Assembly (NCBI GenBank): GCA_024720975.1
Contig: JANJXX010000004.1
Coordinates: forward strand, 32,517 to 96,516
Direction: 5' to 3'
From: Candidatus Panguiarchaeum symbiosum
GTDB lineage: Archaea; Asgardarchaeota; Njordarchaeia; Njordarchaeales; Panguiarchaeaceae
DNA: 64,000 nt
Shown one piece after another: positions 14,618-62,871 of the stretch; the stretch's first letter is position 1, and every line of letters begins with the position of its first letter. Made by a program: the position numbers and the translations under genes. The notes under the pieces are model-generated. The model ran no database searches. It was not told the DNA's origin and worked only from the letters and a program-made list of their open reading frames with translations.

Positions 14618-16288
14618 CTACTTTACCTCTCTAACTCTTATCGCAATTGGTTTCCTCAGGGGGCTCATTAATCCTGCAACGTAGAATTCTCTAGGCATAA
14701 GTTGTGCCAGGTCTGATTCATCAATTCCCGCTATGTCAGCGAACTCCCTAATCTCTTTTAAGTCAGTTGTTTGACTTAATCTAGAGAAGAACACTGTGTT
14801 CAAATTCGCTCTTATGTCTGGATCTACGCTTCCTGCTAATCTTTGTGATAATACTATCAAACCGTATCCCCACTTTCGCCCTTCACGCGCAATTTTCTCC
14901 ACTTGTCCCTCGCAATAGTCACCGCCCCAGGCATAATTTTGTGCCTCATCTATTACAATAACCGTATTTATTGGAACATACCTATGCTTCCCGCTTAAGA
15001 AGTTCTCTCTATAGATCCACTTCCACCCATAGTCTATGATGTCTCCGACAATCGCCTTTTTCATTTCTAAGGTGTACTCAAATGAGAGATCTATAACCAG
15101 CGGTTTTCCTTGTCGCTTAGCATCACGCGCTAGATCAAACAAAGCTCCTATAGGGCGCTCCCTCCTCAAGAGCATTATCTCTAGGTCTTCTGGCTTAATG
15201 AAGTAACTCATTCGCCAAGCGAGGTTCTCGACTGTTTCTGGCCTCGCACCAAGCTTGCTTGCCACTCTTTTGAGCAACTCTGTCATATTTGCATGAATAT
15301 CATTGAGCAGCTTCGAACGACCTTCGGTATCCACGGTAGACTTTAATTCCTTTTTGTACTTTTGTATGAATTCCCTAAGTTTCGTAGCAGATTGTCCTAT
15401 GTGGGCATCTCTATGAACTTGACTTAGCCCCTTTCTGTAACTTTCAATATTAACAGGTTCTGGTTTCTCTTCTTGACCTTCCATGCATTTCTTGAGTTCT
15501 ATGCTAAAACATTCTAGATAAGTTGAATAATAGTCGCTTAGCCTCAGTGTTTCCATGAAAAAGTCAGCTATTCCTGAGGGGCCAAGGTCTACTTCCAGTG
15601 AGGTAATTGTTGTGTCGGGATAGAAGACTGTATAATCCATACCAGTATGATCAAAGATTATTACAGAAAACTCAGTTTTTTGAACGATTTCATCTATGAG
15701 CACCTTAGCTAATCTCGATTTTCCCATGCCTGTTGCTCCAAAAATGCCGATATGATATTGGATATACCTAGAATCTAGAGGAACTTCGACATCCCCAGAG
15801 TATTTGTGCGTGCCGACGACAAGTGGAGACTGCATTCCAGTTAAGGACGATGCAATAAGACTTGTCAGTAGATCGCCACGCCTTACTCTATAGACCTTGC
15901 TTCCCGGAAATGGTACATATGTAACATTCCAACTGATGCCAGCAATGCGATTATCTTGGGTGGCTATTTCCGCAATGGGTATTACATATACATTTGTATA
16001 TGTAAGTTTCTCGATCCTGTCTATGGCATCTGGATATTCCTCAACGCCAACCTTGACACGCGGTCTTAAGTAGGGTTCAAGCCTGCGTATCCATCGTACA
16101 ACACCAAGTATTATGGGAGTTCCTGGATGTTCTTCATCATGAACTAACGCAAGCGTTTCGGTTCTTATTGAGGTCGCAGGTTGACCGGCGAATATAGATA
16201 TTGGGATGGCTGTTACAGACGCATCTGATAGAACGAAGCCGATTAAATCATTACCTAGAAAGTCGGAAATGGTTACATTATTTGTCAA
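14618..16288 (-). CDS. herA: HerA-type bipolar DNA helicase/translocase
   Basis: Walker A 'GIFGATGMGKSRLAKVL', Walker B 'NTVIVIDEAQNYAWGG', 'GLIVLSQRLAGSVDPDIRANLNTVFFSRLS'; paired with nurA. Confidence 0.9.
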   Translation of the reverse strand: MTNNVTISDFLGNDLIGFVLSDASVTAIPISIFAGQPATSIRTETLALVHDEEHPGTPIILGVVRWIRRLEPYLRPRVKVGVEEYPDAIDRIEKLTYTNVYVIPIAEIATQDNRIAGISWNVTYVPFPGSKVYRVRRGDLLTSLIASSLTGMQSPLVVGTHKYSGDVEVPLDSRYIQYHIGIFGATGMGKSRLAKVLIDEIVQKTEFSVIIFDHTGMDYTVFYPDTTITSLEVDLGPSGIADFFMETLRLSDYYSTYLECFSIELKKCMEGQEEKPEPVNIESYRKGLSQVHRDAHIGQSATKLREFIQKYKKELKSTVDTEGRSKLLNDIHANMTELLKRVASKLGARPETVENLAWRMSYFIKPEDLEIMLLRRERPIGALFDLARDAKRQGKPLVIDLSFEYTLEMKKAIVGDIIDYGWKWIYRENFLSGKHRYVPINTVIVIDEAQNYAWGGDYCEGQVEKIAREGRKWGYGLIVLSQRLAGSVDPDIRANLNTVFFSRLSQTTDLKEIREFADIAGIDESDLAQLMPREFYVAGLMSPLRKPIAIRVREVK

Positions 16289-44024: not shown

Positions 44025-47000
44025 TCACTGCTGCCTCCTAAGTGCACTAAGGAGCTTGCTCAAGTCTACATCCTCAAAAATTGCGCCAATATATGCACTG
44101 TCCTTCTCTAAGAGTATTACTGATTCCTTGTCATCCTTAACTACCACAGTCACCCCCTCAGGTACATGCGTCATAGTTGCCACAAAGGCATTGCCAATCA
44201 CTCTCTTTTCCCCTAGTCCTGTGTATATCTCTATTATGGCCTGTTTATTGCTGGACTCTAGCAGAATTTTCTCTAATGCTTCATCGATGACAGGAGTTAT
44301 TATCAGCACATACCTGCGGGCACTATCGATCATAGACTGCAGTAGTGTGTTTAATACTTCACGCCCGTAGTATATGAAAACTCCTTTGGGTCGACTCTTA
44401 ATTTCTGATGCATACTGTTGAATTGCATTTAAGATGGATGAAGCAACTTTGTCTGACCACTCCACAACACGCCCTGCCTTACTAGCAACACCTGTGAGGA
44501 TCTCATCAGTTCTCTCGCGAATGTCTAACTCTTCTCTTTCTAGAAGTGCTTTTAATTCATCTCGTGCGCTCGTTATATGAGTTTCTAGCATTCTACTTTG
44601 TTCTTTTATCTTTGTACTAGCCTCATCAATTGATTTTGAAATAATGTTCACAGTTTCCTGATGAGCCGAGGATATCTTATCCCGCAAAGTTTCTCTGATA
44701 GTTTTAAGTCCCTGGTCATAATTTTTGAAGATTTCTTGTGATTTTGACTTGAGAGCATTTGTATCGCTAGCTATTTCTTGCAGTAACATATTCCTCATAG
44801 ACTCTATCGCCCCAGAGATTTTTTCTGCATAACTGTCATACAGCTGTATTGTTTGCTTCTCGACTTGCTTCGAGGAATCTTCGAACTCATTTTTTATGTT
44901 GCTAGTTTCACTGTCAACTTTAGAGGCGACTTCGTCTATCCTGCTGATCTTATTAATAACATAGTTGTGAGTATTCTCATGCATGCGTGTTATAACGTCT
45001 AATGTTTCTGCCTCCTTATTTGAGATGAAACTAGTAAGCTCGCTAACTGTTAGGGTTATCTTTGATGATATCGCCTCCATGACTGCTTTTCTTGTAGATT
45101 CTGATAAACCTTGTAACAAGTCTCTATATCTGCTATAATTTTCATCAACATTCTTGTGCACCCCCTGCAGTATATCTAGTAGGGTTTTGGAAGTATTATC
45201 TATTTCCCAAGAGGCACCCTCACTACTTGCCGCTAAACCGGCTTTGAACTTCATTTTGATGTCATTCAATGATCCATTTATTGCTTCTAGTAGTGCTCCC
45301 TTTCTTGCATTTACAAAATCACTTAGGGACTTCATTCCGGATTCGATTTCCCGCAGACAATTATTCACAGCTGTTTTTATTACGGTAGTGCCATCTTTAA
45401 ACATGCCATCTATCTCGTCCTTCCTATTGTTAATCATGGATTCTAGAGTTTCTCTATAGTTATCAAAACCTGCCTGCAGGCCCGCTATAGAGTTATCTAA
45501 TGCCCTCAGACCTCCACCCATGTTCTTCTCCAAATTTGAGGATATTAACGTCAACTGGTTGCTAACAATATTTTGAAATTCATGGAAACACTTGTTCACG
45601 TAACTCAGTAGTAGTTTTAATTCACCACATACTTCTGAGTCCAGCCATAAAATATTATCCTTCAGAAGAGTTTCAGTATCACTAATTTGAGAGGTTAATT
45701 GCTGCTTAAATGACTCGATGAGTAGCATTATATGATCCGTAAGGATGCTTGAGAAATTCGAACCATAAGTCGTCAGCAGATCTTTCATTGTATCCTTGAT
45801 TCGCTTTTTATCGTCCTCTAATTCCATGAATAGCCTATCCTTCACACTGGCTATATATTCACTTGAAAGTTCAAGACGTTTCTCCTCTGATCCTTCAGTA
45901 GCACTTGATGCTTGGGCTTCACCCTTTTCAAATTCAGAGAATAGTGACTTCTTGAGGTCCTCCTTGATATCATCTATGAATTTGACAAACAGAGATGAGA
46001 GTTCGGAATTTAACTTCCCGATGAGAGGATTTATAGTCTCAATTACCTTCTCTTCTATAGATTTTTTGACTTGTGGCTTTGATAATTCCTTGATGGCTTT
46101 CTGTATATTTTTGGAGAGCGCATTATGAGTTTTCCTTAAGCGGTCTCTGAAATGCTCTATGAGCCTAGTTATTCCATCATCAATTTCTTTAACCGACGAC
46201 TCTACTTGAGCATCTAAATCTTTTATGACATTTCCTACACTGACTAAAATGGACGCATAGGCATTTGAGAGCTCGCCTATACTTTGCTTGAATTCTTTTG
46301 TCCATGTAGATAAGACTTTTGAAGTTTCGCTGCTGGCAGCGTCAATTAAATTGTCGAGACTATTGATGATCGGCTTCTTGATAGACTCCATTGTACTCGT
46401 AATTGTTGAATCTAAACTTGCTAAATCACCTGAGAACAGATCTTTTTGATAACTGATTTTCATAGTTATGTGATTTAATATTTCGTCGAGTTGCTTCCAC
46501 ATGTTCTGTTCCGAGACTGCACATACTTCATCAAATTTCGGGCCTATTTTTTTAATTGTTTCCGCAATGTTCATCCTAAGTAGGCTTAACAATTCATCTT
46601 GTTTGGAGATGGCATTTTTAATCTGCGTGACAGTTGTGCTTCTGTAAGTTTCAATGGCACGTTCCAACTCTGCAAACTCCTCATTTATAATCTCAGATAA
46701 TAAGTGCGCCAGCTCATCTAGCTTCGTTTCACCAGTCAATTTGAGTTTGTCAGATACTTCTGACATAGCTTTTTCTACTGCGTTTCTCACACTGAGTACC
46801 ATATCACTAAGTACTGCGATTGCTTCCTTTACAAAATCTTTGATCACTACTAAATTGCTGGTATATGTGTCGTGTAGGTGCTTAATATATCTCTCAAATG
46901 TCTCATGAATGCTGGCCATAGTCCTAGTGAAGTCTGTCTTTATGTGCTCAATCTCACTTTTACTTGTAGATAGTAGGCTTAGAACACTTTCTTCTGTTGT

Positions 47001-47540
47001 TTGAGAAAGCTTTTTCTCAAGGTTTTCAACGGTAGTATGCATTGCCTCTTGCAAGGTTTCAAGACTCTTAATGTTCTCGTTAAGTATATCGAGAATCTTT
47101 TCCACGGTATCTTTAAGCGATTGAATCGCTTCCAGATTCTTTGAGGCTGCTCCTTTGTAAATTTCTATGACTTCATCTAGCATATTATGTATTGAACGTA
47201 CGGCGCTATCTGTCCTACTGACAAGCAAGTCCGCAAACTTCGCATGAGATTCACTTATCTGCTCCCTTAACTCATGGAAACTTTCTTTTAGTTTTTCCTC
47301 AATCTTCTTGAGCTCTTCTTTTAGGACATTTATAAACTCAAGGGACTCGGTTAGTCTCGGCAGGGCAAAAAATCTTCCATCATCAAACCTCGCAATGTAA
47401 CCTTTCTTAATCATCTCATCTAGAGTACTATTAACGACATCGCTCGATAAACCAAGAATCTTTGCTAATAAATCAGCAGTAAGGGGGCCGGACTCGAGTA
47501 GCAACCTATATATTTGCGCCTCAGCTGAGTTTAAGCTCAT
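44025..47540 (-). CDS. Giant coiled-coil protein with TrmB-like wHTH N-terminus and TrmB/PLD-like C-terminus
   Basis: N-term 'SLNSAEAQIYRLLLESGPLTADLLAKILGLSSDVVNSTLDEMIKKGYIARFDDGRFFALP'; long central heptad-like Ser/Glu/Lys-rich region; C-term 'VLNTLLQSMIDSARRYVLIITPVIDEALEKILLESSN'. Confidence 0.8.
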   Translation of the reverse strand: MSLNSAEAQIYRLLLESGPLTADLLAKILGLSSDVVNSTLDEMIKKGYIARFDDGRFFALPRLTESLEFINVLKEELKKIEEKLKESFHELREQISESHAKFADLLVSRTDSAVRSIHNMLDEVIEIYKGAASKNLEAIQSLKDTVEKILDILNENIKSLETLQEAMHTTVENLEKKLSQTTEESVLSLLSTSKSEIEHIKTDFTRTMASIHETFERYIKHLHDTYTSNLVVIKDFVKEAIAVLSDMVLSVRNAVEKAMSEVSDKLKLTGETKLDELAHLLSEIINEEFAELERAIETYRSTTVTQIKNAISKQDELLSLLRMNIAETIKKIGPKFDEVCAVSEQNMWKQLDEILNHITMKISYQKDLFSGDLASLDSTITSTMESIKKPIINSLDNLIDAASSETSKVLSTWTKEFKQSIGELSNAYASILVSVGNVIKDLDAQVESSVKEIDDGITRLIEHFRDRLRKTHNALSKNIQKAIKELSKPQVKKSIEEKVIETINPLIGKLNSELSSLFVKFIDDIKEDLKKSLFSEFEKGEAQASSATEGSEEKRLELSSEYIASVKDRLFMELEDDKKRIKDTMKDLLTTYGSNFSSILTDHIMLLIESFKQQLTSQISDTETLLKDNILWLDSEVCGELKLLLSYVNKCFHEFQNIVSNQLTLISSNLEKNMGGGLRALDNSIAGLQAGFDNYRETLESMINNRKDEIDGMFKDGTTVIKTAVNNCLREIESGMKSLSDFVNARKGALLEAINGSLNDIKMKFKAGLAASSEGASWEIDNTSKTLLDILQGVHKNVDENYSRYRDLLQGLSESTRKAVMEAISSKITLTVSELTSFISNKEAETLDVITRMHENTHNYVINKISRIDEVASKVDSETSNIKNEFEDSSKQVEKQTIQLYDSYAEKISGAIESMRNMLLQEIASDTNALKSKSQEIFKNYDQGLKTIRETLRDKISSAHQETVNIISKSIDEASTKIKEQSRMLETHITSARDELKALLEREELDIRERTDEILTGVASKAGRVVEWSDKVASSILNAIQQYASEIKSRPKGVFIYYGREVLNTLLQSMIDSARRYVLIITPVIDEALEKILLESSNKQAIIEIYTGLGEKRVIGNAFVATMTHVPEGVTVVVKDDKESVILLEKDSAYIGAIFEDVDLSKLLSALRRQQ

Positions 47541-50644: not shown

Positions 50645-51664
50645 CTAGGAGGTACCAATGAACGAAACTACATCGCTTGCAATGTTCTCTAGCTCTCTTT
50701 TATTTGAGAACCAGTAGAATTTAACTTTGTTTGCTAGATGCCCCAAATATTCAAATGACTCCCTGCGTGCTACAACAATTAGTGGTATTCCCATTTCAGA
50801 AGCTCTTCTAATCTTTATTTCCTTGTTTATCAAGTACTTGACTCGATAATATCCAACTATCTCAATGTATACCTTTCTATTTCCTAGAGTCACCTCGAAA
50901 TCTGGTATGAATACTAAGTCACCAATTAGTATTGGTGCATCTTTTCTTACGCTTACCCCAAGTTTCTTAAGCGCCTCATAGAATATGCTCTCAAAAGTAC
51001 TATCAAAAACTTTGTGTTTGAATGCCGTCGCAATTGGAGTTCCCTGGATAATGATCTTCCTTCCATTCTGCAGCATTACCTTCACTTTTGAACCGTATCC
51101 AAGAATTGCCGCCATCGGCTCTAGGCTAAGTTCACTTGCTCGAATATATGCAATAATTTCTTCATTCTCCTCTATATGTGTATCGGCTCTAAGCCTCCTT
51201 GCTATAAATAGTACGTCTTTAACCAGAGTCCCTCCTTCTATTTTTGGGAAATGCAAAGTTACCATTACAGCTCGTTTAAGGAGGCGTCTAACTATGAGGA
51301 AGTTTATTATACCCGTGAGGAGCTTAGGTTCTAAGTTGGCCTTCTGAGAGAGTGTCTTATGACCATTAAACCATGCCAGGAATAGCTGTTTATCTATGCC
51401 CTGCTCTTTGCAGAACCTATCTATGAGATCATCAAGCATACCCAATCTAATGAATTCGCCAGAGTATCTTCTCCAAGCCTCTTTTATCTCTGCTGGTAAT
51501 TCAACTGGTCTTTCCTCATAGAATATCTCTAATGCACTCATAACAGCAGGAATTAATCTCTTTGGAACTTGCTCCATTAGTTTATCGTAGATATCTGCAA
51601 AACTTGCTGAATTTCTTGCAATTTCAATTATCTTTTCGGATAGGTTTTCATCAGCAAACCTCAT
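50645..51664 (-). CDS. Bax1/DUF790-like nuclease
   Basis: 'DAPILIGDLVFIPDFEVTLGNRKVYIEIVGYYRVKYLINKEIKI' fits DUF790/Bax1 with a D...ExV nuclease-like core. Confidence 0.75.
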   Translation of the reverse strand: MRFADENLSEKIIEIARNSASFADIYDKLMEQVPKRLIPAVMSALEIFYEERPVELPAEIKEAWRRYSGEFIRLGMLDDLIDRFCKEQGIDKQLFLAWFNGHKTLSQKANLEPKLLTGIINFLIVRRLLKRAVMVTLHFPKIEGGTLVKDVLFIARRLRADTHIEENEEIIAYIRASELSLEPMAAILGYGSKVKVMLQNGRKIIIQGTPIATAFKHKVFDSTFESIFYEALKKLGVSVRKDAPILIGDLVFIPDFEVTLGNRKVYIEIVGYYRVKYLINKEIKIRRASEMGIPLIVVARRESFEYLGHLANKVKFYWFSNKRELENIASDVVSFIGTS

Positions 51665-52101
51665 ATTAAGTCCTCCAGCGCCTTGATGATCACTTCTTGG
51701 ATCATATCTATAGTCTCTCTAACAACTAAATATCTTGTAACGCCATTTGAATCCTTATCGCATTTGATTAGGTTTATACTCAGTGCGCTTTTTATCCAGG
51801 CTCTAGTAACTTTTGCTGATCCTACACGCATTTGCAGCTCTCTAAAGTAGAACTCCCTCAACTCAATCGCATGAAAGAACGCCCCACCAAAACCACTTAA
51901 GGTATTTAGAATCTTCTCAAGCAGTTGGTATGACTTTTCCCATCCTTGCCACACTAAACTCTCCACTTGTTCGCTCTTTCCCTCAAGTTTAGCTATCTCT
52001 AAAGCCTTTTTCAAGTAAGAATCATCCACTTCATCGTATACATATTTCTTTATTCTCTCTGCCAACTTATTGGGTATAATTCGCCAAATAAATGACAACA
52101 T
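51661..52101 (-). CDS. Uncharacterised helical protein in radA operon
   Basis: 146 aa; 4-bp overlap with the Bax1-like gene. Confidence 0.65.
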   Translation of the reverse strand: MLSFIWRIIPNKLAERIKKYVYDEVDDSYLKKALEIAKLEGKSEQVESLVWQGWEKSYQLLEKILNTLSGFGGAFFHAIELREFYFRELQMRVGSAKVTRAWIKSALSINLIKCDKDSNGVTRYLVVRETIDMIQEVIIKALEDLI

Positions 52102-52104
52102 AAG

Positions 52105-52359
52105 CTACCTCGAGAGTTTTTCTAGGAGTTCTTCGAAACTCCTAGTAATTTCCTCAATGAGTCTCCTAATGCCATCTCTTTGAACCCTCATTATGCCTCC
52201 ACTAATCTCAATTATGCCTAGTCTCTTCGCGCTTTCAAGCCATACCCTAGCTTTAGCTGTATCCGGAATTCTGCTGGGATCTTGAAGATATTTCTTGAGC
52301 TCCGGTCCAAATGTTGTTAAGAATATTGCTAAATCTCTAAGATCGTCTTGGCTAAGCAT
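52105..52359 (-). CDS. Small uncharacterised (wHTH-like) protein in radA operon
   Basis: 84 aa; start overlaps the radA stop. Confidence 0.65.
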   Translation of the reverse strand: MLSQDDLRDLAIFLTTFGPELKKYLQDPSRIPDTAKARVWLESAKRLGIIEISGGIMRVQRDGIRRLIEEITRSFEELLEKLSR

Positions 52360-53389
52360 CAGCTATTCCCTCATCCGTTATTTTAATTTTGCATTCTCCA
52401 GGCGGCAGCCATGAAGAATCCATGATTGACACCCTGCGGTAGGGATCTGTTGCTCTTACGAGAAGGAGCCGCGTATCAACAGTATGACCTAGTACATGAC
52501 CACCTGTAGGTTTAAATCCAAGCCCGATTGTTCCTACCGACGCAACAACCTGATTTGTTACCAAAACAACAGCTTCATAGTTTATTGCTATTCTTCTCAG
52601 CTTCTCTGCCATGTCTAGTATCAACCTCTGTCTGGCGTATAATTCTCCTTGCCCTGAGAAGTCTGCTCTAGGTAACTTTGTGAGGCTATCAACAACCACG
52701 AGTTTTGCATTATTTTCCCTGACAACACTTACAAGACTCTCAATGATACGCTTCTGATCCCAGGCGTTCTCCGGCCTACTTATGATTATCCTCTTCATCA
52801 CTTCTTTTTCGTCCAAGTTGAATCTCTTGATAATTTTCTTGAACCTATTTACGGAGAAAGTTCTTTCACTGTCAATTATAACAGCCGAGATATCACCATC
52901 ATTCAACCCCCAATGTTCCTTCTGATTCCCCTTTCTAGCTTCACCCTGCTCCGTTTCCTGCAATATTTCTTGAATCTCCTTCTGACTCATTGAAGGAAGA
53001 AAAACCGTGGCTAGTGCAGTAAAACAAGCCTGACTCTTGCCAGAACCGTAGGGACCAGCTAACTCTGTTACTTCACCAACACACCATCCTCCTTGTAGCA
53101 GTCTATTAAGTGCATGTGCACCAGTTGACATAAACCTTTTCTTCTCACTGGTTTTCTCGAGCTCAGCAATTGGCATAAACCTTTTCCTGTGCTGGTCTAG
53201 AAACTCTATCGCTTTGTCCAATATTTTCTCGCACGTTTCTTTAGATAAGCCCGTTATCTCAGCTAGTCTAGTTGGGCTGTACAGCAATATGTCCTTAATA
53301 TAGTATATTCCGGCAGACTCTAACGCAGCTAGCGTTTGCTTTTGAAGTTTTAGCTCATGCACTGTGTATTCCTTAGACATCACTACCAC
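52352..53389 (-). CDS. radA: DNA repair/recombination protein RadA-family recombinase
   Basis: N-terminal HhH, 'FMSTGAHALNRLLQGGWCVGEVTELAGPYGSGKSQ', Walker B 'KLVVVDSLTKLPRADFSGQGELYARQR', 'VLVTNQVVA', 'GGHVLGHTVDTRLLL'. Confidence 0.92.
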   Translation of the reverse strand: MVVMSKEYTVHELKLQKQTLAALESAGIYYIKDILLYSPTRLAEITGLSKETCEKILDKAIEFLDQHRKRFMPIAELEKTSEKKRFMSTGAHALNRLLQGGWCVGEVTELAGPYGSGKSQACFTALATVFLPSMSQKEIQEILQETEQGEARKGNQKEHWGLNDGDISAVIIDSERTFSVNRFKKIIKRFNLDEKEVMKRIIISRPENAWDQKRIIESLVSVVRENNAKLVVVDSLTKLPRADFSGQGELYARQRLILDMAEKLRRIAINYEAVVLVTNQVVASVGTIGLGFKPTGGHVLGHTVDTRLLLVRATDPYRRVSIMDSSWLPPGECKIKITDEGIADA

Positions 53390-53436: not shown

Positions 53437-54105
53437 TTGGTGCGGTTCTTGATAAGCCTAGTCTACATATGCTCTATGGTTATGCAAATAGCACTGGATA
53501 TAAATCTTCTCATACTAGCATGGGTCCTTTACGCGTTATTGCAGTACTGCTGGAGTGGCATGTCTAAATTCATCTCAATCCTCTTACTTCCGGGAACGCT
53601 TATTCACGTGGCATCGCACTATCTGCTGGCTAAACTGCTGAACATAAAACCTTATGTAACCCTTAGCATAATACCAGATGAGAGCCATCGAGCTGGACTA
53701 TACACAAGCACCAATATCTATAGAATAAACTCTTGGAGGATTGGCTTTGTGGCCATGGCTCCATTGATGATTTCATTACCAATGATAATCCTTCTTAGAT
53801 GGATACTCAAAGTTGCAATCAATCTAGGTTCATACGCAGCTAGCCTAATTATAGCATGGCTTCTGATTTCTATATTCGTCTGCGGTCTCCCATCACTAGC
53901 TGACCTAGGATTTATAGCTAGTAACGTGATTATCAAGCACCCAGATACTATAATAGCCTTGCTTCTCCTGCCAACAATCTACATACTTGGAACAATGGCA
54001 TATGATAACGAAGTCGCAGTCTACGGGACAGCACTATACATCACTTTAGTAGCAATGGCCTCTATTCTAGGAGAAGCAAAGAAGGAAGAGATAATCATCG
54101 ACTAG
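53437..54105 (+). CDS. Polytopic membrane protein, possible M50-like (HxxxH)
   Basis: 222 aa, multiple TM; 'PGTLIHVASHYLLAKLLN'. Confidence 0.6.
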   Translation: MVRFLISLVYICSMVMQIALDINLLILAWVLYALLQYCWSGMSKFISILLLPGTLIHVASHYLLAKLLNIKPYVTLSIIPDESHRAGLYTSTNIYRINSWRIGFVAMAPLMISLPMIILLRWILKVAINLGSYAASLIIAWLLISIFVCGLPSLADLGFIASNVIIKHPDTIIALLLLPTIYILGTMAYDNEVAVYGTALYITLVAMASILGEAKKEEIIID

Positions 54106-54203: not shown

Positions 54204-55151
54204 GTGTACTCGACGTGCTCATACAGGTGCTTAATGATGGACTTGTCAGTGACAAAGAGAGTCTTATTGTTTGTTGCTATCTCATACTCTCTGGCTATAC
54301 TTATAGACTGTATAATTTTCTATCTAAACCAGCTTGAATACGCCTTCCTGTGGGGATTTGCTAGAATGTGGAGTGTCACGCTAGCTACTATAATATGCTT
54401 ATACATTGGTCGAGAAAGTATTTTGACTTCACTAAAGAGTATAATAAACCCAGTCAAGAAAGTTCTAAAACCGTATCTTATTGCTCCATTTGTTGTTTAT
54501 TTAGCACTCTGCATTTATATTGCCATAGCCACTCCGCTAAATTTATTCAACCTTAACGCTTATATTAGCGCCATAGTGGAGTTTCTAGTAGAGCATGGCG
54601 TCCCCGAAGAGCAAGCTCGAATGATAGCTATTATTGCCGTGTATAGCATCTTCATCCTCGGTTACATATATGCGATAACAATCAATGCACTCTTTGCCCT
54701 AGGGGAGGAAATTGGTTGGAGAGGTTATTTATTTGATCAACTAAAGAATAGACCAATGTACCTATCCACAATAATAATAGGTCTTATATGGGGATATTGG
54801 CATACATCGGCAATAATTCTCCTCGGGCACAACTACTATATCAATAGATTCCTGGGAGGATTCGTGCTTTTTCCACTATTCACGACTGCTATAACCTATC
54901 CATATCTGGAGCTGGTGAGGAGGTCAAAAAGTGTTCTACCCGCAGCATCACTACATGGGGCTCTAAATGCGCTGTGGGGTATAACAATAGTGGCCTCAAC
55001 ACTACCGCCAGAAGCCAGTGAGATATACCTAGGACTCGGAGTATTAGGTATAGTTTCTTGGACTATATTAAGCGTGGCATTGTATCTAGCACTAAGATTC
55101 CGCCAGCGTTATCTCCTAACACCGAAGAAAACCAACTTAGAGACGCCTTAG
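54204..55151 (+). CDS. CPBP family intramembrane metalloprotease
   Basis: 'ALGEEIGWRGYLFDQLKNRP', 'GLIWGYWHTSAIILLGHNYY'. Confidence 0.87.
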   Translation: MYSTCSYRCLMMDLSVTKRVLLFVAISYSLAILIDCIIFYLNQLEYAFLWGFARMWSVTLATIICLYIGRESILTSLKSIINPVKKVLKPYLIAPFVVYLALCIYIAIATPLNLFNLNAYISAIVEFLVEHGVPEEQARMIAIIAVYSIFILGYIYAITINALFALGEEIGWRGYLFDQLKNRPMYLSTIIIGLIWGYWHTSAIILLGHNYYINRFLGGFVLFPLFTTAITYPYLELVRRSKSVLPAASLHGALNALWGITIVASTLPPEASEIYLGLGVLGIVSWTILSVALYLALRFRQRYLLTPKKTNLETP

Positions 55152-55159
55152 AAACCTCC

Positions 55160-56098
55160 TCAAAGAAAAGAGCTTGCGATTTTCCAGAGAGGTCGACATT
55201 TAATTTCTCCACTTATATTTCTACCTTCGATCATGACTCTTTTTACCACTCTATTTTCTGTGATCACTGTTGGGACGTCTAGCTCAAGCGGATCCCTAGT
55301 AACTATAGTTACATGTCCTCTCTTAAGCAATTTGATCGCAGATCTCCATGGATAGGGCAAGGCGACTACAAGATCATAGGGCCACATATTTGTTGCTATC
55401 TCCAGAGCTAGCTTTTGTTGTACTGCTGGTAATCCTGTCAAATCCAAATAAGCTCTTTGTGGCAATTGTTCATCTTCGACTAAGACTGACCATCTAAATA
55501 ATTCGTCTATCTCTGGCATTGGCATTAGTATTGCTTCTTCATCTGCCATTAACTTCTGTAGTCTTGCTTTTATTATTCCTACAATATGCTCTACCCTCTT
55601 ATTAAATGCTCTCGCTAGTATTGAGGCCAGATCGTATAGCTTTGTTTCACTAGTTGGTACTGGAAAGCCGTCAATCTCGATGAATTCGGCGCTCGGTATT
55701 TGGTTCCCTACAAGGTCAATCCATAGCAACTGCTGTCCGGAAAGATAGAGAGCTGCTCTTATATCATCTACTGCTATAGGTTTGGATATATCTACCCTAA
55801 CAATGTTTCCCCTATCTCCTATGCCTACTGGAACTCCCTCCGAGATTTTTTCCAGGAGTTGGACTAAAACTCTAAAGCTAAATTTTGCTGACATTGGTTC
55901 CTTTGAGAAGCCTATACCTAGATGCTTCAATGCTCTCAACAATTCTTTCGGTGCATTAACTTCTATCACAGCTCTTGCATAGGGCTCTATAATTTCAAGA
56001 ATTCTGACCCTTATCTCGGCTCCAAATTTTTCCGACGCTTTAAGATAGTCCCTCTTGATAGAATCTTTCAAAGACTTCGGGTTGACATAGTAGGTCAT
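55160..56098 (-). CDS. Uncharacterised 312-aa soluble protein
   Basis: Intact ORF; start overlaps the stop of the upstream 1029-aa gene by 4 bp. Confidence 0.75.
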   Translation of the reverse strand: MTYYVNPKSLKDSIKRDYLKASEKFGAEIRVRILEIIEPYARAVIEVNAPKELLRALKHLGIGFSKEPMSAKFSFRVLVQLLEKISEGVPVGIGDRGNIVRVDISKPIAVDDIRAALYLSGQQLLWIDLVGNQIPSAEFIEIDGFPVPTSETKLYDLASILARAFNKRVEHIVGIIKARLQKLMADEEAILMPMPEIDELFRWSVLVEDEQLPQRAYLDLTGLPAVQQKLALEIATNMWPYDLVVALPYPWRSAIKLLKRGHVTIVTRDPLELDVPTVITENRVVKRVMIEGRNISGEIKCRPLWKIASSFL

Positions 56099-59000
56099 TG
56101 TCTTCCTCTCTTCCTTGTATGCGTCAAACCTATTCCTAGAACAATTCCAAGCAGAAGAGTCGAAACAAATAGTGGAATATTCTTGAACTCCAGCGGACTG
56201 GTACTTTTCACAGACTCCCTTTCAATTATTATGTGAAGTATAATTGACGCATAATTACCAGCTAAGTCATAGGCTCCAATAATAAAGTAATATTCTCCAA
56301 CACCCAAATCGAGAATACTATTTGTGGAGATTTCGACTTTAAAGCTCTCATAAATCAGAATTATCTTGGAGATTCCAGAGAGATCTTCTATATCAAGGAC
56401 TATGTTTACCTGAGCCTTTTCTTCTTTAGTAGTTATTACGGTGTTGTTTTGTGGCTCAATCAGATTTATCACAGGCGGGCTCGGATCAAATCCAATTATG
56501 AAGACCTTGCAACTAAAGTCCCTATAACCGCTAGCTTCAATGCGAATAATGTTAATGCCTATCTCAAGTTCTATAGATGTGGTTATGTTTGACTGATAGT
56601 TTGACACTAAAGTAGCATTTCTAAATATGGATACTCTATCAGCAGCGCCATAGATCCGAATAGTAACGTTAATTGCAGGAGTGTTCTGCCACGTATTGTT
56701 TGGAGCTTGAACTTCCAGGGTGAGGGGTATGTCCACGATGAACCAAGTTCTATTTTCACAGACTCTATCTATATGATCCCTAGCAACTATTGTTACACTA
56801 TAATTTCCCTCGGCTAGGTTTGTTAGAGTTAATTCTCCCTCACTCTCAATATAACTCACGAAGGATCCATTGAGGTACAGCTCTGCATTCTTCACCATTA
56901 GATCATCTGAAATTTTCCACGCAACTTTGACTGTTTTCTGGTTGAATAACTCACCCGTGTTTGGGGACAGTATCACGACTTTGGGAGGGGCTAAGTCCAG
57001 TACCAGGGTGAGATTCTTTAGGTAATAGCTGCAGTTAATGTATAAGACCGAAGAGAATAGACCATACCTACCTAACCCCCCATAACATCCATCAAAGTTA
57101 AGTGTAGCCTTCCCTCTGCTCGTAAGTGCTACTATTTTACTCCTGCCAAACACAGCGGATTCGCAACCACCATTTACCTGTTCGTCAAAGCTTATTACTT
57201 CAGCAGACCCATCAGTGAATATTCTTTTAACCACAGTGCCATTTAAAAAGCCATAGCTACCAGCAAGCGAAATGACTGAGAACACCCACTCTGACGCTCT
57301 GAAAACCCTTGGTGGGGTGCTCCATATTGCACTACCATTCTCAAGAATGCACATCGTATAGTTCCAATGCAGGGTCGCATTTCTAGCGTAAACTACGCAA
57401 GCAATCTCAAATTTTCCGTCCCTATCCTTATCTCCAGCGACAACAGATGCTCCTGCAACGTTTGAGTTCTGAAGGCTTATTTGAATTGTTCTTGCTAGAT
57501 TTCCGTTGACATATATTGCTACCTCTGTGTATCCAGTCGTATTCTTTATCAGAGAGAAAATCCAGTATGAGCCGAGCGAGTATATTGATACTGGCTTGTA
57601 TCCTGACGGAGGATTCCATCTAGTAACAACACCTGTTGAAACTGTGAGTATGTCGAGTGTGCCGTTATCCCTCATTATGTAAATCTTACTCCCATCAAAG
57701 TCTGCCGCCAGACAGTTTGTTGCATTCATATTTATAGAGGCTATCTTCCCTCCCCTTTGGATCGTCACAATATCAGAATCAAAGACCAAAATTGCCAAAT
57801 CTGACGCCGCTACAGCAGACAAAATCACTTTCTGAGTTGAGAAGGTTACAGAATAGTCCATCCAGAATACAACTGCGTGATGCGCATTATAGATCACCAA
57901 CGTATTTTTGTCTATTTGATAATTCCACCCGGCGTTAAGAAATGGTCTTGAAACAAGGAGATCTGAGCCTCGTATACTCAAGCAGGAACCTCTCCTTGAT
58001 ACTGCAAATATATTATCCAAACTCTCTAGGAGTATAGATTCATCCTCAACCTGAAAGACTTCTCGTAGAACTAATGTCTTATCGTATACCTTGAGGTCGT
58101 TCCCAGTTAACATTGCTACGCCTTCGCAATATAAAGCTGCTTGGTCGATATATTCACTGATCGTATAAACTCCAACTACACTGGAGGTATCATTGGCTGT
58201 ATCTATAAGAGCGAGGAAAGTCGAATTGTAAACTAGAAACTCAACACTCTCATCCCGATCTATGTCCATACAACTAAAGCGTCTCAAGCTGTATATAAGC
58301 GTTCTCCAATCTATGGAATCAGCCATCTCAAAATATGTAAGCGAGCCGTTTATGATCTTGAGAACAAAACAACTGGTGCCAACACAGCCAATTGAATATA
58401 CAATATCCTTGAGTCTGGCCATGGGTGAGCATGGTGCCATTGAAGCGAAGCGCGTTGCCACTGGGTTGTAATATGTCCAATTCAATATCAAATTGTTGTC
58501 AAGATATCTTACGAGTCCAAGGAGATACTTACCGGAATAGTCTATGTCAAGAAGCTGTGCAGAACTACCAGCATACATTACTAAGGTCTCATTTAGAGAC
58601 TCGCCATCAATGCTGAGATATGCAATTTTACCTGAGTTGTATTTCCACAATACTATTATAGGCTTGGGGTCAGTTAACATAGCAAAAAGCGCTTCAGTAT
58701 AGTTACCATCATGATTTAGAGTCCAGATAATTTTGAGGTCACTATCGAGCAAGTAAACCTTAGTAGCTGTAAGGACAACAAGTTCATATTCCTGATCATT
58801 ATCAATATCTTCATAATCTACCGATAAAATTGCTTCATTAGTTCGAAAAATTCTATCAGTACCATTTATGTGAATGTAATCCACTCCCTGAATAACAAAC
58901 TTATCACCGGCATAATGGACATCGGATATCTCACCCAGAGGGTAAAGGGCTAGAGTCTTTGTCTCAACTACAGGAATTTCACTCGATTTTGCATTATCTA

Positions 59001-59184
59001 ATGTTTCAGAATAAGCGGTATGTATCGCCCTGCAATTCGCAGCTTGAGCGATGTGAATAATTGGACTATCACCACTGAAATTGGTCTCAATCTCTTGACT
59101 TTTTGTAGTACTTAAGGGAGTGATCACTTGAAAGAGTACTACTAGAAGTATTGCTAATTGCACGCAAGAAAGTCTCTTAACCAC
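56095..59184 (-). CDS. Large secreted, C-terminally membrane-anchored protein with repeat-rich ectodomain and Ig-like domain
   Basis: Signal peptide 'LAILLVVLFQVITPLS', many N-x-S/T sequons, DxDxD-type 'GDKDRDGKFEIACVVYARN' and 'YEDIDNDQEYELVVLTATKVY' motifs, C-terminal TM 'FVSTLLLGIVLGIGLTHTRKRGRQ'. Confidence 0.78.
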   Translation of the reverse strand: MVKRLSCVQLAILLVVLFQVITPLSTTKSQEIETNFSGDSPIIHIAQAANCRAIHTAYSETLDNAKSSEIPVVETKTLALYPLGEISDVHYAGDKFVIQGVDYIHINGTDRIFRTNEAILSVDYEDIDNDQEYELVVLTATKVYLLDSDLKIIWTLNHDGNYTEALFAMLTDPKPIIVLWKYNSGKIAYLSIDGESLNETLVMYAGSSAQLLDIDYSGKYLLGLVRYLDNNLILNWTYYNPVATRFASMAPCSPMARLKDIVYSIGCVGTSCFVLKIINGSLTYFEMADSIDWRTLIYSLRRFSCMDIDRDESVEFLVYNSTFLALIDTANDTSSVVGVYTISEYIDQAALYCEGVAMLTGNDLKVYDKTLVLREVFQVEDESILLESLDNIFAVSRRGSCLSIRGSDLLVSRPFLNAGWNYQIDKNTLVIYNAHHAVVFWMDYSVTFSTQKVILSAVAASDLAILVFDSDIVTIQRGGKIASINMNATNCLAADFDGSKIYIMRDNGTLDILTVSTGVVTRWNPPSGYKPVSIYSLGSYWIFSLIKNTTGYTEVAIYVNGNLARTIQISLQNSNVAGASVVAGDKDRDGKFEIACVVYARNATLHWNYTMCILENGSAIWSTPPRVFRASEWVFSVISLAGSYGFLNGTVVKRIFTDGSAEVISFDEQVNGGCESAVFGRSKIVALTSRGKATLNFDGCYGGLGRYGLFSSVLYINCSYYLKNLTLVLDLAPPKVVILSPNTGELFNQKTVKVAWKISDDLMVKNAELYLNGSFVSYIESEGELTLTNLAEGNYSVTIVARDHIDRVCENRTWFIVDIPLTLEVQAPNNTWQNTPAINVTIRIYGAADRVSIFRNATLVSNYQSNITTSIELEIGINIIRIEASGYRDFSCKVFIIGFDPSPPVINLIEPQNNTVITTKEEKAQVNIVLDIEDLSGISKIILIYESFKVEISTNSILDLGVGEYYFIIGAYDLAGNYASIILHIIIERESVKSTSPLEFKNIPLFVSTLLLGIVLGIGLTHTRKRGRQ

Positions 59185-59289: not shown

Positions 59290-60144
59290 ATGATAATCGC
59301 ATTCGTTGGTCTAGATCAGGCAGGCAAAAGCAGTATTAAGGTATATCTCGAAAGTCTAAGCACGAAAAATGCATTGAACACTAGCATGAGCAATGGGGTT
59401 GAATCCTATTTGCGTGGAAATATGAGGATTGATGTATTTCCAGGTCAGGAAAAACTACGGTATATGGAGCTTCTCTATGAGAGATTTTTCCCCTACATCG
59501 ACAAATTGGCTCTAATTGTAGATGCAAGCGCTAGGGATCGTTTCGATGAGGTTAAGAGGTACTGGAAGTTCTTGAAAAATATGCTGGAAAAGTATGCCGA
59601 GAAGGAAATCCAGGTAATCTTAGTTGCCCACAAGCAAGATTTAAGCGGCGCAGTTTCAAGCGATGAGTTATGCAAGATAATATTTGATGCAGATGACATA
59701 GAGAGATATAATGTAATTCACTTGAACACCAGTATCTTTGATCCAATAAGCATGAGCCTACTCCTGCGTGCACTTCATGGTGCTATAGGTTTAATCGAGA
59801 GTATTACAGAAATGCTAAGAGCCGAAACTAGAGCGCAGATAGTAGCCATATTTGACGGACACCTACTACCAATTGCCATAAGTGGAACTAGTCCCCGGTC
59901 TGAACTTTTCGAGAGAGTCCATGAGCTTGTAACCTCAGTGGAGAAGTTTGGATACCTTAAAGCTTTTGTCGCTATCTTCGAAGGCGAAAAAGTCCTGGCT
60001 ATTAGCAGAAGAGAAGGAAACGAGAGAGTTATAATCTGCATAATCAATTTTGGGGAGACTCTAGAAAGGGTTATAGAGCTTAGCAATAATGCAATCTCTC
60101 ACTATATTAACGAGCTTAGAAAGAGATTCTGGGGCTGGCAATGA
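59290..60144 (+). CDS. Rag/Arf-like small GTPase with C-terminal roadblock-like domain
   Basis: 'IIAFVGLDQAGKSSIKVYL', 'VFPGQEKLRYMELLYERFFPYIDKLALIVDAS', 'LVAHKQD'; C-term 'AQIVAIFDGHLLPIAISG...AFVAIFEGEKVLAISRREG'. ATG at 59290 aligns with the paralog's start. Confidence 0.82.
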   Translation: MIIAFVGLDQAGKSSIKVYLESLSTKNALNTSMSNGVESYLRGNMRIDVFPGQEKLRYMELLYERFFPYIDKLALIVDASARDRFDEVKRYWKFLKNMLEKYAEKEIQVILVAHKQDLSGAVSSDELCKIIFDADDIERYNVIHLNTSIFDPISMSLLLRALHGAIGLIESITEMLRAETRAQIVAIFDGHLLPIAISGTSPRSELFERVHELVTSVEKFGYLKAFVAIFEGEKVLAISRREGNERVIICIINFGETLERVIELSNNAISHYINELRKRFWGWQ

Positions 60145-60887
60145 TTTTAGAAGCCCTCACAGGTCTGCTGCTTGGTCTATTCCTAGTGTATATCTTCGAT
60201 AGGATCCATTATAGACTAAAGCTGAGAAGAGGTACGCAAATTATAGAAAGGATGAAAATGCTAGCTCGTAGCAGCAGGACCAACATGCCAATAGAAAAAC
60301 AACAAAGACTACAAGCCAACACGTTACTGCAGTTGGTAAATAACTGGGTGCTCGAGATACAAGCAGTTGGTGAAACTCAAGCAGCATTGCTGAGACAACT
60401 TGGATTGGCAAAAATTGCTGGGGAGGTCATTATCACAAACAGAGAATTACTAAGTGAAATTGCTAATGTACTTAGGCGAAGTAAGCTTGAACCGGAGTAT
60501 CGTCTAATCCCCCTGCCTAGCGGAGCCCTAGAAAAACTAGGCGAATTGGGAATTATTAGCCTAAGTTTCATCGAAATAAGCAGCGAAATAGGACCCAGAT
60601 TCCTATTCGCAACGACAAAAACTGAGATGACAGACAGAATTAGCTCAGACACAGAGCTCCAAAATAGGTTCTTTATTCTAGCTGGAGCGCAAAGTGAACT
60701 CGACGTTTACGGCAAAAGAATTATTTTAAAGGATGTAAAAGGCGGAGAAAGGGGGCTCAAGGGCATAATTGTAGCCGAAGTCGTGAGAAGTGCTGATAGG
60801 AGTAGAATACTAAATTTCTTATCCAAGATAAGCACAATCCCTAACTCGCCCGAGGACGCCGCCAATAAGATACGGGATGCGCTGTGA
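60141..60887 (+). CDS. N-terminally membrane-anchored protein, unknown
   Basis: 'LEALTGLLLGLFLVYIFDRIHYRLKLRRG' TM anchor; overlaps the GTPase stop by 4 bp. Confidence 0.75.
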   Translation: MILEALTGLLLGLFLVYIFDRIHYRLKLRRGTQIIERMKMLARSSRTNMPIEKQQRLQANTLLQLVNNWVLEIQAVGETQAALLRQLGLAKIAGEVIITNRELLSEIANVLRRSKLEPEYRLIPLPSGALEKLGELGIISLSFIEISSEIGPRFLFATTKTEMTDRISSDTELQNRFFILAGAQSELDVYGKRIILKDVKGGERGLKGIIVAEVVRSADRSRILNFLSKISTIPNSPEDAANKIRDAL

Positions 60888-61408
60888 AGGCCCTAGCAAT
60901 TGTCCTAATTCTACTCACACAAGTCCAAGTGCCAATGATTAGCTGGACATTCGAGGATATTGGACTGTCTGACATTTTAATAGAGAACACACTTAAAGAA
61001 TACACAGTATCCACAAATTTCCACTCTGAGCTTGTGGGTAGCGTGACCTTTAACGTTAAAGTCTATGCCAATGTCTCACTGAAATTGAGAATAACCATAA
61101 ATGACGTAACTAAGGAACTGAATGCGAATGAAAATGTAACATTTGATGGCGTCTTAAAAACCACCAATACATTGGAAATCACTATCCCACCCCAATTACC
61201 ATCTAGACCAGTGATAATATACAAGAACTCAACAATAGTAGCAAAGCTTAAAATACCTAGCGGGAGTGAGAGCCAGATACAAGAGCACAAGGAAATACTG
61301 AGATATGCCTTTTGGATACTAGTACTAGTTCCCCCATTACTAGTCTACTTGTACGAGAAAAAAACAGCGAAAATGGAGACCGAAGGCAAAGAAGTGATTT
61401 TAACATGA
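60884..61408 (+). CDS. Secreted/membrane protein with C-terminal TM helix, unknown
   Basis: Signal peptide-like N-terminus (GTG start overlapping the previous stop), beta-rich ectodomain, TM 'YAFWILVLVPPLLVYLY'. Confidence 0.72.
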   Translation: MKALAIVLILLTQVQVPMISWTFEDIGLSDILIENTLKEYTVSTNFHSELVGSVTFNVKVYANVSLKLRITINDVTKELNANENVTFDGVLKTTNTLEITIPPQLPSRPVIIYKNSTIVAKLKIPSGSESQIQEHKEILRYAFWILVLVPPLLVYLYEKKTAKMETEGKEVILT

Positions 61409-62871
61409 GCTTTCTAGAGCTACTGCCATACAAACCAAGCTTAGCTGAGGAAATTGCAAGAGGCTTGTTAAGCTCAAAAAATGTTGTTCTAATCCGCGCC
61501 CCAGCAGGAAGTGGAAAAACTAGCATTGCAGTGGCATACATAATTCATCTAGCTCTTCTAGGTAAAAGAGGAGCAATATTTCTGAGAACACGACGTGAGG
61601 TAAATCACGCACTAAGTATTACCCGGGCTGTTGTCAGCAGACTAAAGACAGCGAAGCTACTCGTCATCCCCACGCCTTCCAAGGAAAGATTCTGTGTTAT
61701 GGGTATAAAGAAAGAGTTGATTAAGTACTGGTGCCCCATTACTGAATGCGAAAGACTACTGAGGCGAAAATATGGCGAAATTGAGAAAGATCTCATGGGT
61801 AAGGTGTTCTCATCCCTAGACAGCTATATAGAACTCTTTGCTCGAGATAAGAGATGCCCCTACTACGCTGCACTGGAGTTGCTGAGAAAAGCTGATATAA
61901 TCATTGGCACACACAACTACTTCATTGAGTCTGAATTATTCGAAAAACTTGGAAAGATAGATGTTGCTGTCATCGATGAGGCCCATGCGCTACTGGTACC
62001 AAAGACCTACGAGGGATTTATTGAAGCCATAGAAAGAGGAAAGGAATATGCCAGAGCTGCAGCTTATCAGGGAATACCATTACATAAGTACATTGTCGCG
62101 CTGGGTAAAACTGATACAAACTCTGCAAGAGATTTAGCCGAATACGACTCATATATGAAAGCAGACGGCATAGAAATCAAGCTCAAGGGGAAGTTGATTA
62201 AAGTCTACCTACCAAAGGACCTAATAAGAGATAGATTACAGAACGTCAACCGCATTATACTCATGAGCTCGACACTCTACCCATCAAACTTCTTCAAAAC
62301 AATATTCACTGGCAATACCATAGACGCTGATATGATCATAATCCCAGGTTTGATTAGTGGGAGAAGGAAATTGATAATTCCACGCACAAACTTAAGCTTA
62401 TCATACGCTAAACGAAATGAGAAAACACTTCTAGCATACGCCGAAATGATCAAAAACATCCAAACAGAACATAGAGAGAAAACTTTAGTATTCTGCCCTA
62501 GCAATGAAATCGCTAGAGAAATAGCTAAATACTTGAAGAAAGAACCAACAGATGAACTCGGAGAAGATCTAGTGATAACAGTATTTAGAGGAAAGATTGC
62601 GGAAGGAATAGACGCAACGGGATACAAAGTCGCAATAATGGCAGGACTCCCGTTCCCACGCATCGATCCAGAAACTGAGAAAATACTACAAACCTACAGC
62701 AAAATCTATAAGATCGATGAAAAGGCAATTAAAGAGGCATACAACCTAAGCTCAATGATATCCGCCTTAGTCCAAGCAATAGGCAGAGTGGGGCGAAGGG
62801 AAGAAGGAGTAGTCTATATAATTGATGCACGTGCAGAATTTATCAGAACACTTCTTCAGTCTCCTTCATAA
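61405..62871 (+). CDS. XPD/Rad3-family (DinG-like) Fe-S superfamily 2 helicase
   Basis: 'VVLIRAPAGSGKTSIAVAYI', 'VAVIDEAHALL', four Cys (FCVMG, WCPITEC, KRCPYYAALE) between motifs Ia and II, 'RGKIAEGIDATGYKVAIMAGLPFP', 'QAIGRVGRREEG'. ATG 61405 overlaps the preceding TGA. Confidence 0.88.
   Translation: MSFLELLPYKPSLAEEIARGLLSSKNVVLIRAPAGSGKTSIAVAYIIHLALLGKRGAIFLRTRREVNHALSITRAVVSRLKTAKLLVIPTPSKERFCVMGIKKELIKYWCPITECERLLRRKYGEIEKDLMGKVFSSLDSYIELFARDKRCPYYAALELLRKADIIIGTHNYFIESELFEKLGKIDVAVIDEAHALLVPKTYEGFIEAIERGKEYARAAAYQGIPLHKYIVALGKTDTNSARDLAEYDSYMKADGIEIKLKGKLIKVYLPKDLIRDRLQNVNRIILMSSTLYPSNFFKTIFTGNTIDADMIIIPGLISGRRKLIIPRTNLSLSYAKRNEKTLLAYAEMIKNIQTEHREKTLVFCPSNEIAREIAKYLKKEPTDELGEDLVITVFRGKIAEGIDATGYKVAIMAGLPFPRIDPETEKILQTYSKIYKIDEKAIKEAYNLSSMISALVQAIGRVGRREEGVVYIIDARAEFIRTLLQSPS

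What the first reader, a model, noticed from the sequence alone, without database searches (positions are those of the whole stretch)
59290..62871. Four-gene overlapping operon coupling a Rag-like GTPase, two membrane proteins and an XPD/Rad3-like helicase
Seen: GTPase, TM-anchored 248-aa protein, secreted/TM 174-aa protein and an Fe-S helicase, each overlapping the next by about 4 bp (60141/60144, 60884/60887, 61405/61408). Known: Rag GTPases combine a G domain with a C-terminal roadblock domain and act at membranes; XPD-family helicases act in repair or transcription. Inference: this could be a membrane-tethered GTPase switch coupled to a DNA helicase, for example in chromosome-membrane coupling, DNA uptake/export or stress signalling. 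I know of no described system with this gene combination.
Basis: partly seen in the sequence, partly recalled or inferred. Interest (0 to 1): 0.85.

Follow-up and report, generated by a model that had tools for sequence, protein, structure and literature searches.

The report
Asgard Rag-GTPase, surface-protein and helicase cluster
In one order of apparently Asgard archaea, a switch protein related to the eukaryotic Rag GTPases sits in a conserved gene cluster with surface and membrane proteins, an unusual XPD-like DNA helicase and a spare RadA recombinase, which suggests an undescribed membrane machine that handles DNA.

Summary
In detail: four overlapping genes (284, 248, 174 and 488 aa; junctions ATGA, GTGA, ATGA) lie at 59290-62871. 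The GTPase is Rag-type: G4 is HKxD, G3 is PGQ, and AlphaFold2 gives a complete C-terminal roadblock domain whose full-length best matches are RagA/RagC/Gtr and LokiRagO. The helicase is not the ordinary XPD. The genome has two of those elsewhere; this one belongs to a separate family with a shortened Arch region and an intact four-Cys set, found in 8 of 10 genomes of the order and in none of 222 others of the phylum. The 248-aa protein is a membrane-anchored winged-helix protein with a longin/roadblock-like C-terminal domain (fold inferred only). The unit is larger than the four genes. Across three families of the order it co-locates with a second RadA, a Bax1-like nuclease (one family), a polytopic membrane protein, a large Ig-repeat surface protein and a soluble protein of unknown family. 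The GTPase is linked in two families, but not in the same-genus relative. Most likely this is a membrane-anchored, surface-exposed DNA-processing apparatus, perhaps for DNA import or exchange with recombination, gated by a Rag-like switch. The function is inferred, not shown.

The parts
59290..60144 (+). Rag-like GTPase, 284 aa: G domain plus C-terminal roadblock domain
   Evidence: Pfam Arf/Gtr1_RagA; AF2 pLDDT 87, CTD helix-2 strands-helix-3 strands-helix; Foldseek top hits are Rag/Gtr and LokiRagO over the full length
60141..60887 (+). LONG: N-terminal TM, probable winged helix, C-terminal longin/roadblock-like domain, 248 aa
   Evidence: family alignments A1/A6, hydropathy; fold inferred from sequence pattern only, HMM tests negative
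60884..61408 (+). S174: secreted beta-rich ectodomain with C-terminal TM and short tail
   Evidence: hydropathy, alignment A2, order-specific
61405..62871 (+). HEL: divergent XPD-like Fe-S helicase, shortened Arch region
   Evidence: Pfam; Cys97/110/115/151 and helicase motifs conserved; DEAH to motif III 83-97 residues; separate from the two XPDs
56095..59184 (-). SURF: large secreted surface protein, Big_7 (Ig-like) domain, C-terminal TM, divergent from the GTPase
   Evidence: Pfam Big_7 2.4e-7; same divergent SURF/GTPase pair in L077
55160..56098 (-). W55160: soluble protein, N-terminal ferredoxin-like region, possible FtsK/HerA-like core without a P-loop
   Evidence: AF2 pLDDT 85; FtsK is the best but weak Foldseek hit in two libraries; order-specific
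53437..54105 (+). W53437: polytopic membrane protein (about 5 TM)
   Evidence: hydropathy, alignment A7, in cluster across the order
52352..53389 (-). RADA2: second, divergent RadA-family recombinase with intact Walker A/B
   Evidence: Rad51 1.8e-47; canonical RadA is on another contig; motifs
52105..52359 (-). small protein, probable winged helix
   Evidence: ortholog in the same place in G001
51661..52101 (-). probable winged-helix protein, related to membrane-anchored winged-helix proteins in f2 clusters
50645..51664 (-). Bax1-like nuclease
   Evidence: DUF790 5.3e-17; NCBIfam endonuclease Bax1 4.6e-14, below the equivalog cut-off; beside HEL in G001

Best explanation
The four genes are part of an order-specific unit, spread over about 12 kb here, that places DNA-processing enzymes (XPD-like helicase, RadA paralog, Bax1-like nuclease) beside membrane and surface proteins. 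Proposed mechanism: SURF and S174 make contact outside the cell; the polytopic W53437 and the membrane-anchored winged-helix proteins hold DNA and enzymes at the membrane; W55160 is an accessory translocase-like scaffold; the helicase (5'-3' if it works like XPD) moves or unwinds strands; RADA2 recombines them. The Rag-like GTPase, through its roadblock domain, docks on the longin-like domain of the 248-aa protein and switches assembly on or off. The most likely use is DNA import or exchange coupled to recombination. Shown by computation: gene content, conserved linkage, Rag and roadblock architecture, non-canonical helicase and recombinase. Inferred: every physical interaction, the direction of DNA movement, and the function.
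For: Linkage across three families of the order. f2: TMWH-RADA2-W53437-W55160-S174-HEL in G007 and G002, W53437-W55160-S174-HEL in G008, LONG-TM282-S174-W53437-W55160-HEL in G002. f1: all parts in the window; G001 has RADA2-W52105-W51661-nuclease running off one contig and nuclease-HEL-S174-LONG on another. f3: SURF-LONG-GTP-S174 on one strand beside W55160-W53437, and HEL-wHTH-RADA2 on another contig. Genomes with W55160 and with the HEL family are the same 8; S174 is in 7 of them; neither W55160 nor S174 is found in the other 222 genomes of the phylum outside the order. Rag architecture. HEL and RADA2 are extra to the ordinary XPDs and RadA, as expected of a dedicated machine. Known archaeal DNA-import loci also lie beside recombination genes: Ted with HerA and Rad50 (PMC9905601).
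Against: No recognisable DNA channel, pilin or T4SS ATPase was found in the cluster, and ComEC was not found in the order. The W55160-FtsK resemblance is weak (E 0.004 and 0.05, TM about 0.2) and was not supported by profile comparison. The GTPase is unlinked in G001 and has no close relative in f2, so it is not essential to the rest. Membrane-bound winged-helix proteins could equally be transcription regulators. Co-location alone does not prove a complex.
Confidence: 0.4

Rival explanations
1. Membrane anchoring of the chromosome: winged-helix membrane proteins tether DNA to the envelope, the helicase and recombinase resolve problems at the attachment site, and the Rag-like GTPase positions the assembly, as MglA and its roadblock regulator set polarity in Myxococcus.
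For: Several membrane proteins with probable winged helices in the clusters; possible FtsK-like W55160; roadblock GTPase modules set polarity in bacteria (PMC9481161, abstract).
Against: Large surface ectodomains and the S174 ectodomain are not needed for anchoring; restricted to part of one order, while segregation is universal.
Confidence: 0.22
2. Surface-sensing signal pathway: SURF and LONG form a receptor and membrane-bound transcription factor, the Rag-like GTPase relays the signal (as Rag/Ragulator does), and the DNA enzymes are targets such as a damage response.
For: SURF and LONG are adjacent on one strand in several loci away from HEL (L166, L167) and in L075, L086; GTPase of Rag type.
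Against: Does not explain the translational overlap of S174 with HEL in f1 and f2 genomes, nor the tight linkage of HEL with W55160 and W53437 in f2, where this GTPase was not found.
Confidence: 0.2
3. Membrane-anchored anti-virus defence (in the manner of Zorya: membrane proteins plus helicase and nuclease).
For: Helicase and nuclease next to membrane proteins.
Against: PADLOC finds no defence protein beyond a generic XPD/DinG profile on which the two ordinary XPDs score higher; the cluster is conserved across the order at high divergence rather than patchy; an extra RadA is unusual for defence.
Confidence: 0.08
4. Ordinary neighbours: the four overlapping genes and the other genes are co-located by compact gene packing and general co-expression without a shared function.
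For: Small genome, overlapping genes are common in archaea; GTPase unlinked in G001.
Against: The same families re-appear together in three families of the order despite rearranged gene order and mostly 20-40% identity; HEL, W55160 and S174 have almost the same phyletic pattern.
Confidence: 0.1

Closest known systems
Rag/Gtr GTPases, including LokiRagO (PDB 8yl2) and eukaryotic RagA/RagC with Ragulator
   Same: G domain plus C-terminal roadblock domain; HKxD G4 and PGQ G3; full-length structural matches
   Different: G domain is by sequence nearest to Arf; encoded with a membrane winged-helix/longin-like protein and a helicase; in Asgard strain MK-D1 such GTPases are generally not in operons with their regulators (PMC10933270)
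XPD/Rad3 Fe-S helicases
   Same: four Cys, Walker A, DEAH and C-terminal helicase motifs
   Different: DEAH to motif III is 83-97 residues, much shorter than in the two ordinary XPDs of the same genome; separate lineage, restricted to one order of the phylum, beside membrane genes
Ced and Ted archaeal DNA import systems
   Same: membrane proteins located with recombination genes (PMC9905601, PMC11868833)
   Different: no CedB/VirB4-type ATPase or pilin was recognised; XPD-like helicase and RadA paralog instead of HerA and Rad50; GTPase and Ig-repeat surface protein
ComEC/ComFA/RecA natural transformation of bacteria
   Same: idea of a surface receptor, SF2 helicase and recombinase (from general knowledge)
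   Different: ComEC not found in the order; no competence pilus genes identified

Membership tests
Rag/Gtr GTPase | C-terminal roadblock domain after the G domain | tested here: met
   AF2 topology; Foldseek full-length to Rag/Gtr; weak but in-register profile match to Asgard roadblocks
Rag/Gtr GTPase | HKxD in G4 and PGQ-type G3 | tested here: met
   AHKQD and FPGQ in alignment A5; that these mark Rags is established knowledge
Rag/Gtr GTPase | best sequence match to Gtr1_RagA rather than Arf | tested here: not met
   Arf 3e-15 against Gtr1_RagA 1.5e-6; PDB profile hits are Arf. So it is Rag-like by architecture, not a proven Rag ortholog
Rag/Gtr GTPase | roadblock-mediated dimer and recruitment to a membrane scaffold | not testable with these tools
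   no complex prediction available
XPD/Rad3 helicase | four Cys Fe-S site and SF2 motifs | tested here: met
XPD/Rad3 helicase | full Arch domain between motifs II and III | tested here: not met
   83-97 residues in HEL; about 80 shorter than the ordinary XPDs by the alignment
XPD/Rad3 helicase | the ordinary single-copy XPD of the genome | tested here: not met
   two other DEAD_2 genes of about 650 aa in the genome; large bit-score gap
Longin or roadblock domain (248-aa protein) | significant profile or structural match to longin/roadblock | tested here: inconclusive
FtsK/HerA ATPase (W55160) | Walker A P-loop | tested here: not met
   no P-loop in any member of alignment A3
FtsK/HerA ATPase (W55160) | fold match | tested here: inconclusive
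   FtsK top but weak in both libraries; profile tests negative
ComEC-type competence | ComEC channel in the genome | tested here: not met
   0 of 10 genomes of the order, control positive in 10 of 14; genomes are drafts
Known anti-phage systems | PADLOC component set | tested here: not met

The most novel reading that the evidence does not exclude
An undescribed, order-specific DNA import/exchange machine of Asgard archaea, built from parts unrelated to Ced, T4SS or ComEC, in which an XPD-derived Fe-S helicase and a dedicated RadA paralog work at the membrane under control of a Rag-like GTPase and its membrane-anchored longin-like partner.
Probability: 0.22. Interest if true: 0.92.

Novelty: new variant of a known kind. 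Interest (0 to 1): 0.7.

Why it matters
What the many Rag-like GTPases of Asgard archaea do is an open question. Because Asgard GTPase genes are generally not beside their regulators (PMC10933270), partners are hard to guess. Here one is co-encoded with a plausible membrane-anchored partner and with concrete DNA enzymes, which gives a small set of proteins to express together. If the DNA-transfer reading is right, it would also be a route of gene exchange in the lineage closest to eukaryotes.

Tried and rejected
Ordinary XPD with variable neighbours: rejected. Type IV CRISPR DinG: the PADLOC profile hit is generic, the ordinary XPDs score higher. Vaccinia A46 hit of S174 (E 0.009): treated as chance. 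Homology of W55160 to HerA or FtsK by profile comparison: not significant, so the structural hint is kept only as a lead; the HerA set used also contained one ABC-type ATPase by mistake (L177), which weakens that negative. The longin/roadblock nature of the 248-aa C-terminus could not be shown by HMM; the roadblock set included a few wrong-strand ORFs picked by the script, which weakens that comparison too. The genome-contig scan was saturated by chance matches to the P-loop and DEAH patterns and gave only distant helicases, among them one Kariarchaeal one. The GTPase tree is unresolved for the f3 copies. The canonical RadA sequences were left out of the RADA2 tree by a script filter, so that tree says nothing about their relationship.

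Full report
Observation. The four genes are as described, at 59290-60144, 60141-60887, 60884-61408 and 61405-62871, with 4-bp overlaps ATGA, GTGA and ATGA. The window is the 3' end of a 96.5-kb contig, so the following gene (about 62991 on) is cut off.

Organism. No name could be obtained. Relatives in the same phylum carry up to 18 roadblock-domain proteins per genome, and the GTPase matches a Lokiarchaeal Rag. I therefore read it as an Asgard archaeon rather than Thermoproteota. The order holds 10 genomes in the collection (families f1-f4).

GTPase. Sequence searches put the G domain nearest to Arf. The motifs (FPGQ, AHKQD) and the architecture are Rag-like. The AlphaFold2 model (7 sequences, pLDDT 87) ends in helix 168-180, strands 184-189 and 194-198, helix 205-218, strands 225-230, 233-242 and 245-252, and helix 258-281: a complete roadblock. 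The best PDB matches over the whole length are Gtr, RagA/RagC and LokiRagO (TM 0.72). A profile of Asgard roadblock proteins aligns in the right register at the first helix and strands (P 0.0014, weak).

Helicase. It has all four Fe-S cysteines, Walker A and DEAH, conserved across ten family members, and the C-terminal motifs in those that are complete. DEAH to motif III is 83-97 residues, about 80 fewer than in the ordinary XPDs of the genome, so the Arch domain is reduced. The genome has two ordinary XPD-like genes elsewhere. A profile of the family scores 379 bits or more in 8 genomes of the order (379 being a contig-truncated copy) and at most 186 bits elsewhere in the phylum.

The 248-aa protein (LONG). 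One N-terminal TM followed by basic residues, then a stretch that in relatives reads as a winged helix, then about 120 residues with the strand/helix order of a longin or roadblock domain. The same family occurs elsewhere in the order, often directly downstream of a large Ig-repeat surface protein (L166, L167, L075, L086), once split into two genes (L171).

The 174-aa protein (S174). Signal-like N-terminus, beta-rich ectodomain, C-terminal TM. No known family. Restricted to the order within the phylum.

The larger neighbourhood. Mapping the contigs of relatives shows the same families together in different orders. f2: G007 and G002 have TMWH-RADA2-W53437-W55160-S174-HEL; G008 has W53437-W55160-S174-HEL; a second G002 locus has LONG-TM282-S174-W53437-W55160-HEL; G005 has the parts spread over about 13 kb; G006 has SURF-LONG facing HEL. 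f3: G003 has W53437-W55160 facing S174-GTPase-LONG-SURF (GTPase/LONG overlap 4 bp), a second GTPase divergent from a SURF gene as in the window, and HEL-wHTH-RADA2 on a short contig. f1: the window has all parts; G001 has HEL-S174-LONG, SURF-W55160/W53437 and RADA2-W52105-W51661-nuclease on separate contigs, two of which break within a nuclease gene. The G001 GTPase ortholog (50% identity) lies on a short contig with other neighbours, so the GTPase link is lost there.

Phyletic pattern. W55160 and HEL occur in the same 8 genomes, S174 in 7 of them; W55160 and S174 are not detected in the 222 genomes of other orders, where A4 finds only ordinary XPD-level scores. RADA2 is a second RadA; the ordinary one is on another contig. 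The nuclease has the C-terminal domain of Bax1, below the equivalog cut-off.

W55160. AlphaFold2 (pLDDT 85) gives a ferredoxin-like N-terminus and an alpha/beta core. The best hit in the PDB and, separately, in the viral library is an FtsK translocase, but weakly (E 0.004 and 0.05; TM about 0.2), profile comparison is negative, and no member has a P-loop. I keep 'inactive translocase-like scaffold' as a lead.

Mechanism. A second RadA, a non-standard XPD and a nuclease kept next to surface and membrane proteins argue for DNA processing at the membrane. Known archaeal import loci (Ted in particular) also lie near recombination genes (PMC9905601, PMC11868833). The Rag-like GTPase with an overlapping gene for a membrane longin-like protein is a natural pair for a switch, and it is notable because such pairs are generally not in operons in Asgard strain MK-D1 (PMC10933270). 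DNA import/exchange is my best single reading (0.4 for the whole statement), with chromosome-membrane anchoring (0.22) and surface signalling (0.2) close behind. ComEC was not found and no channel is recognised, so this stays open.

Limits. The genomes of the order are drafts (73-90% complete), so absences are soft. No complex prediction or experiment was possible. Co-location is the main evidence for joint function.

Noticed in passing
54088-54105 (+) and 61390-61408 (+); L082, L085, L079, L157: W53437 and S174 often end in a similar hydrophobic-acidic tail (for example IIVEDEE and IIIVEDKE in L082, EEIIID and KEVILT in the window); 12 of 19 proteins fit a pattern seen in about 4% of other proteins. 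The pattern was chosen after looking, so this is only a lead for a shared docking motif.
   Followed up: partly
11187-12047 (-): A second Rag-like GTPase of the same family (34% identical), outside the cluster; its ortholog in G001 is at L074:7389-8252.
   Followed up: partly
44025-47540 (-): 1171-aa coiled-coil protein with an N-terminal TrmB/MarR-type HTH; apolipoprotein-like low-complexity match.
   Followed up: no
54204-55151 (+): Polytopic protein with an EEIGWRGYLFDQL motif that looks like a CPBP/CAAX intramembrane protease, lying inside the cluster of this genome.
   Followed up: no
53437-54105 (+), L157, L200, L224: W53437 has an LFPGxLIHxASHYL segment that resembles an M50 protease site without the catalytic Glu.
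   Followed up: no
14618-16288 (-): HerA-type ATPase with an intact P-loop, one of at least five in the genome.
   Followed up: partly
L171:15060-15962: A LONG protein split into two adjacent genes: TM plus winged helix (162 aa) and the longin-like domain alone (133 aa).
   Followed up: partly
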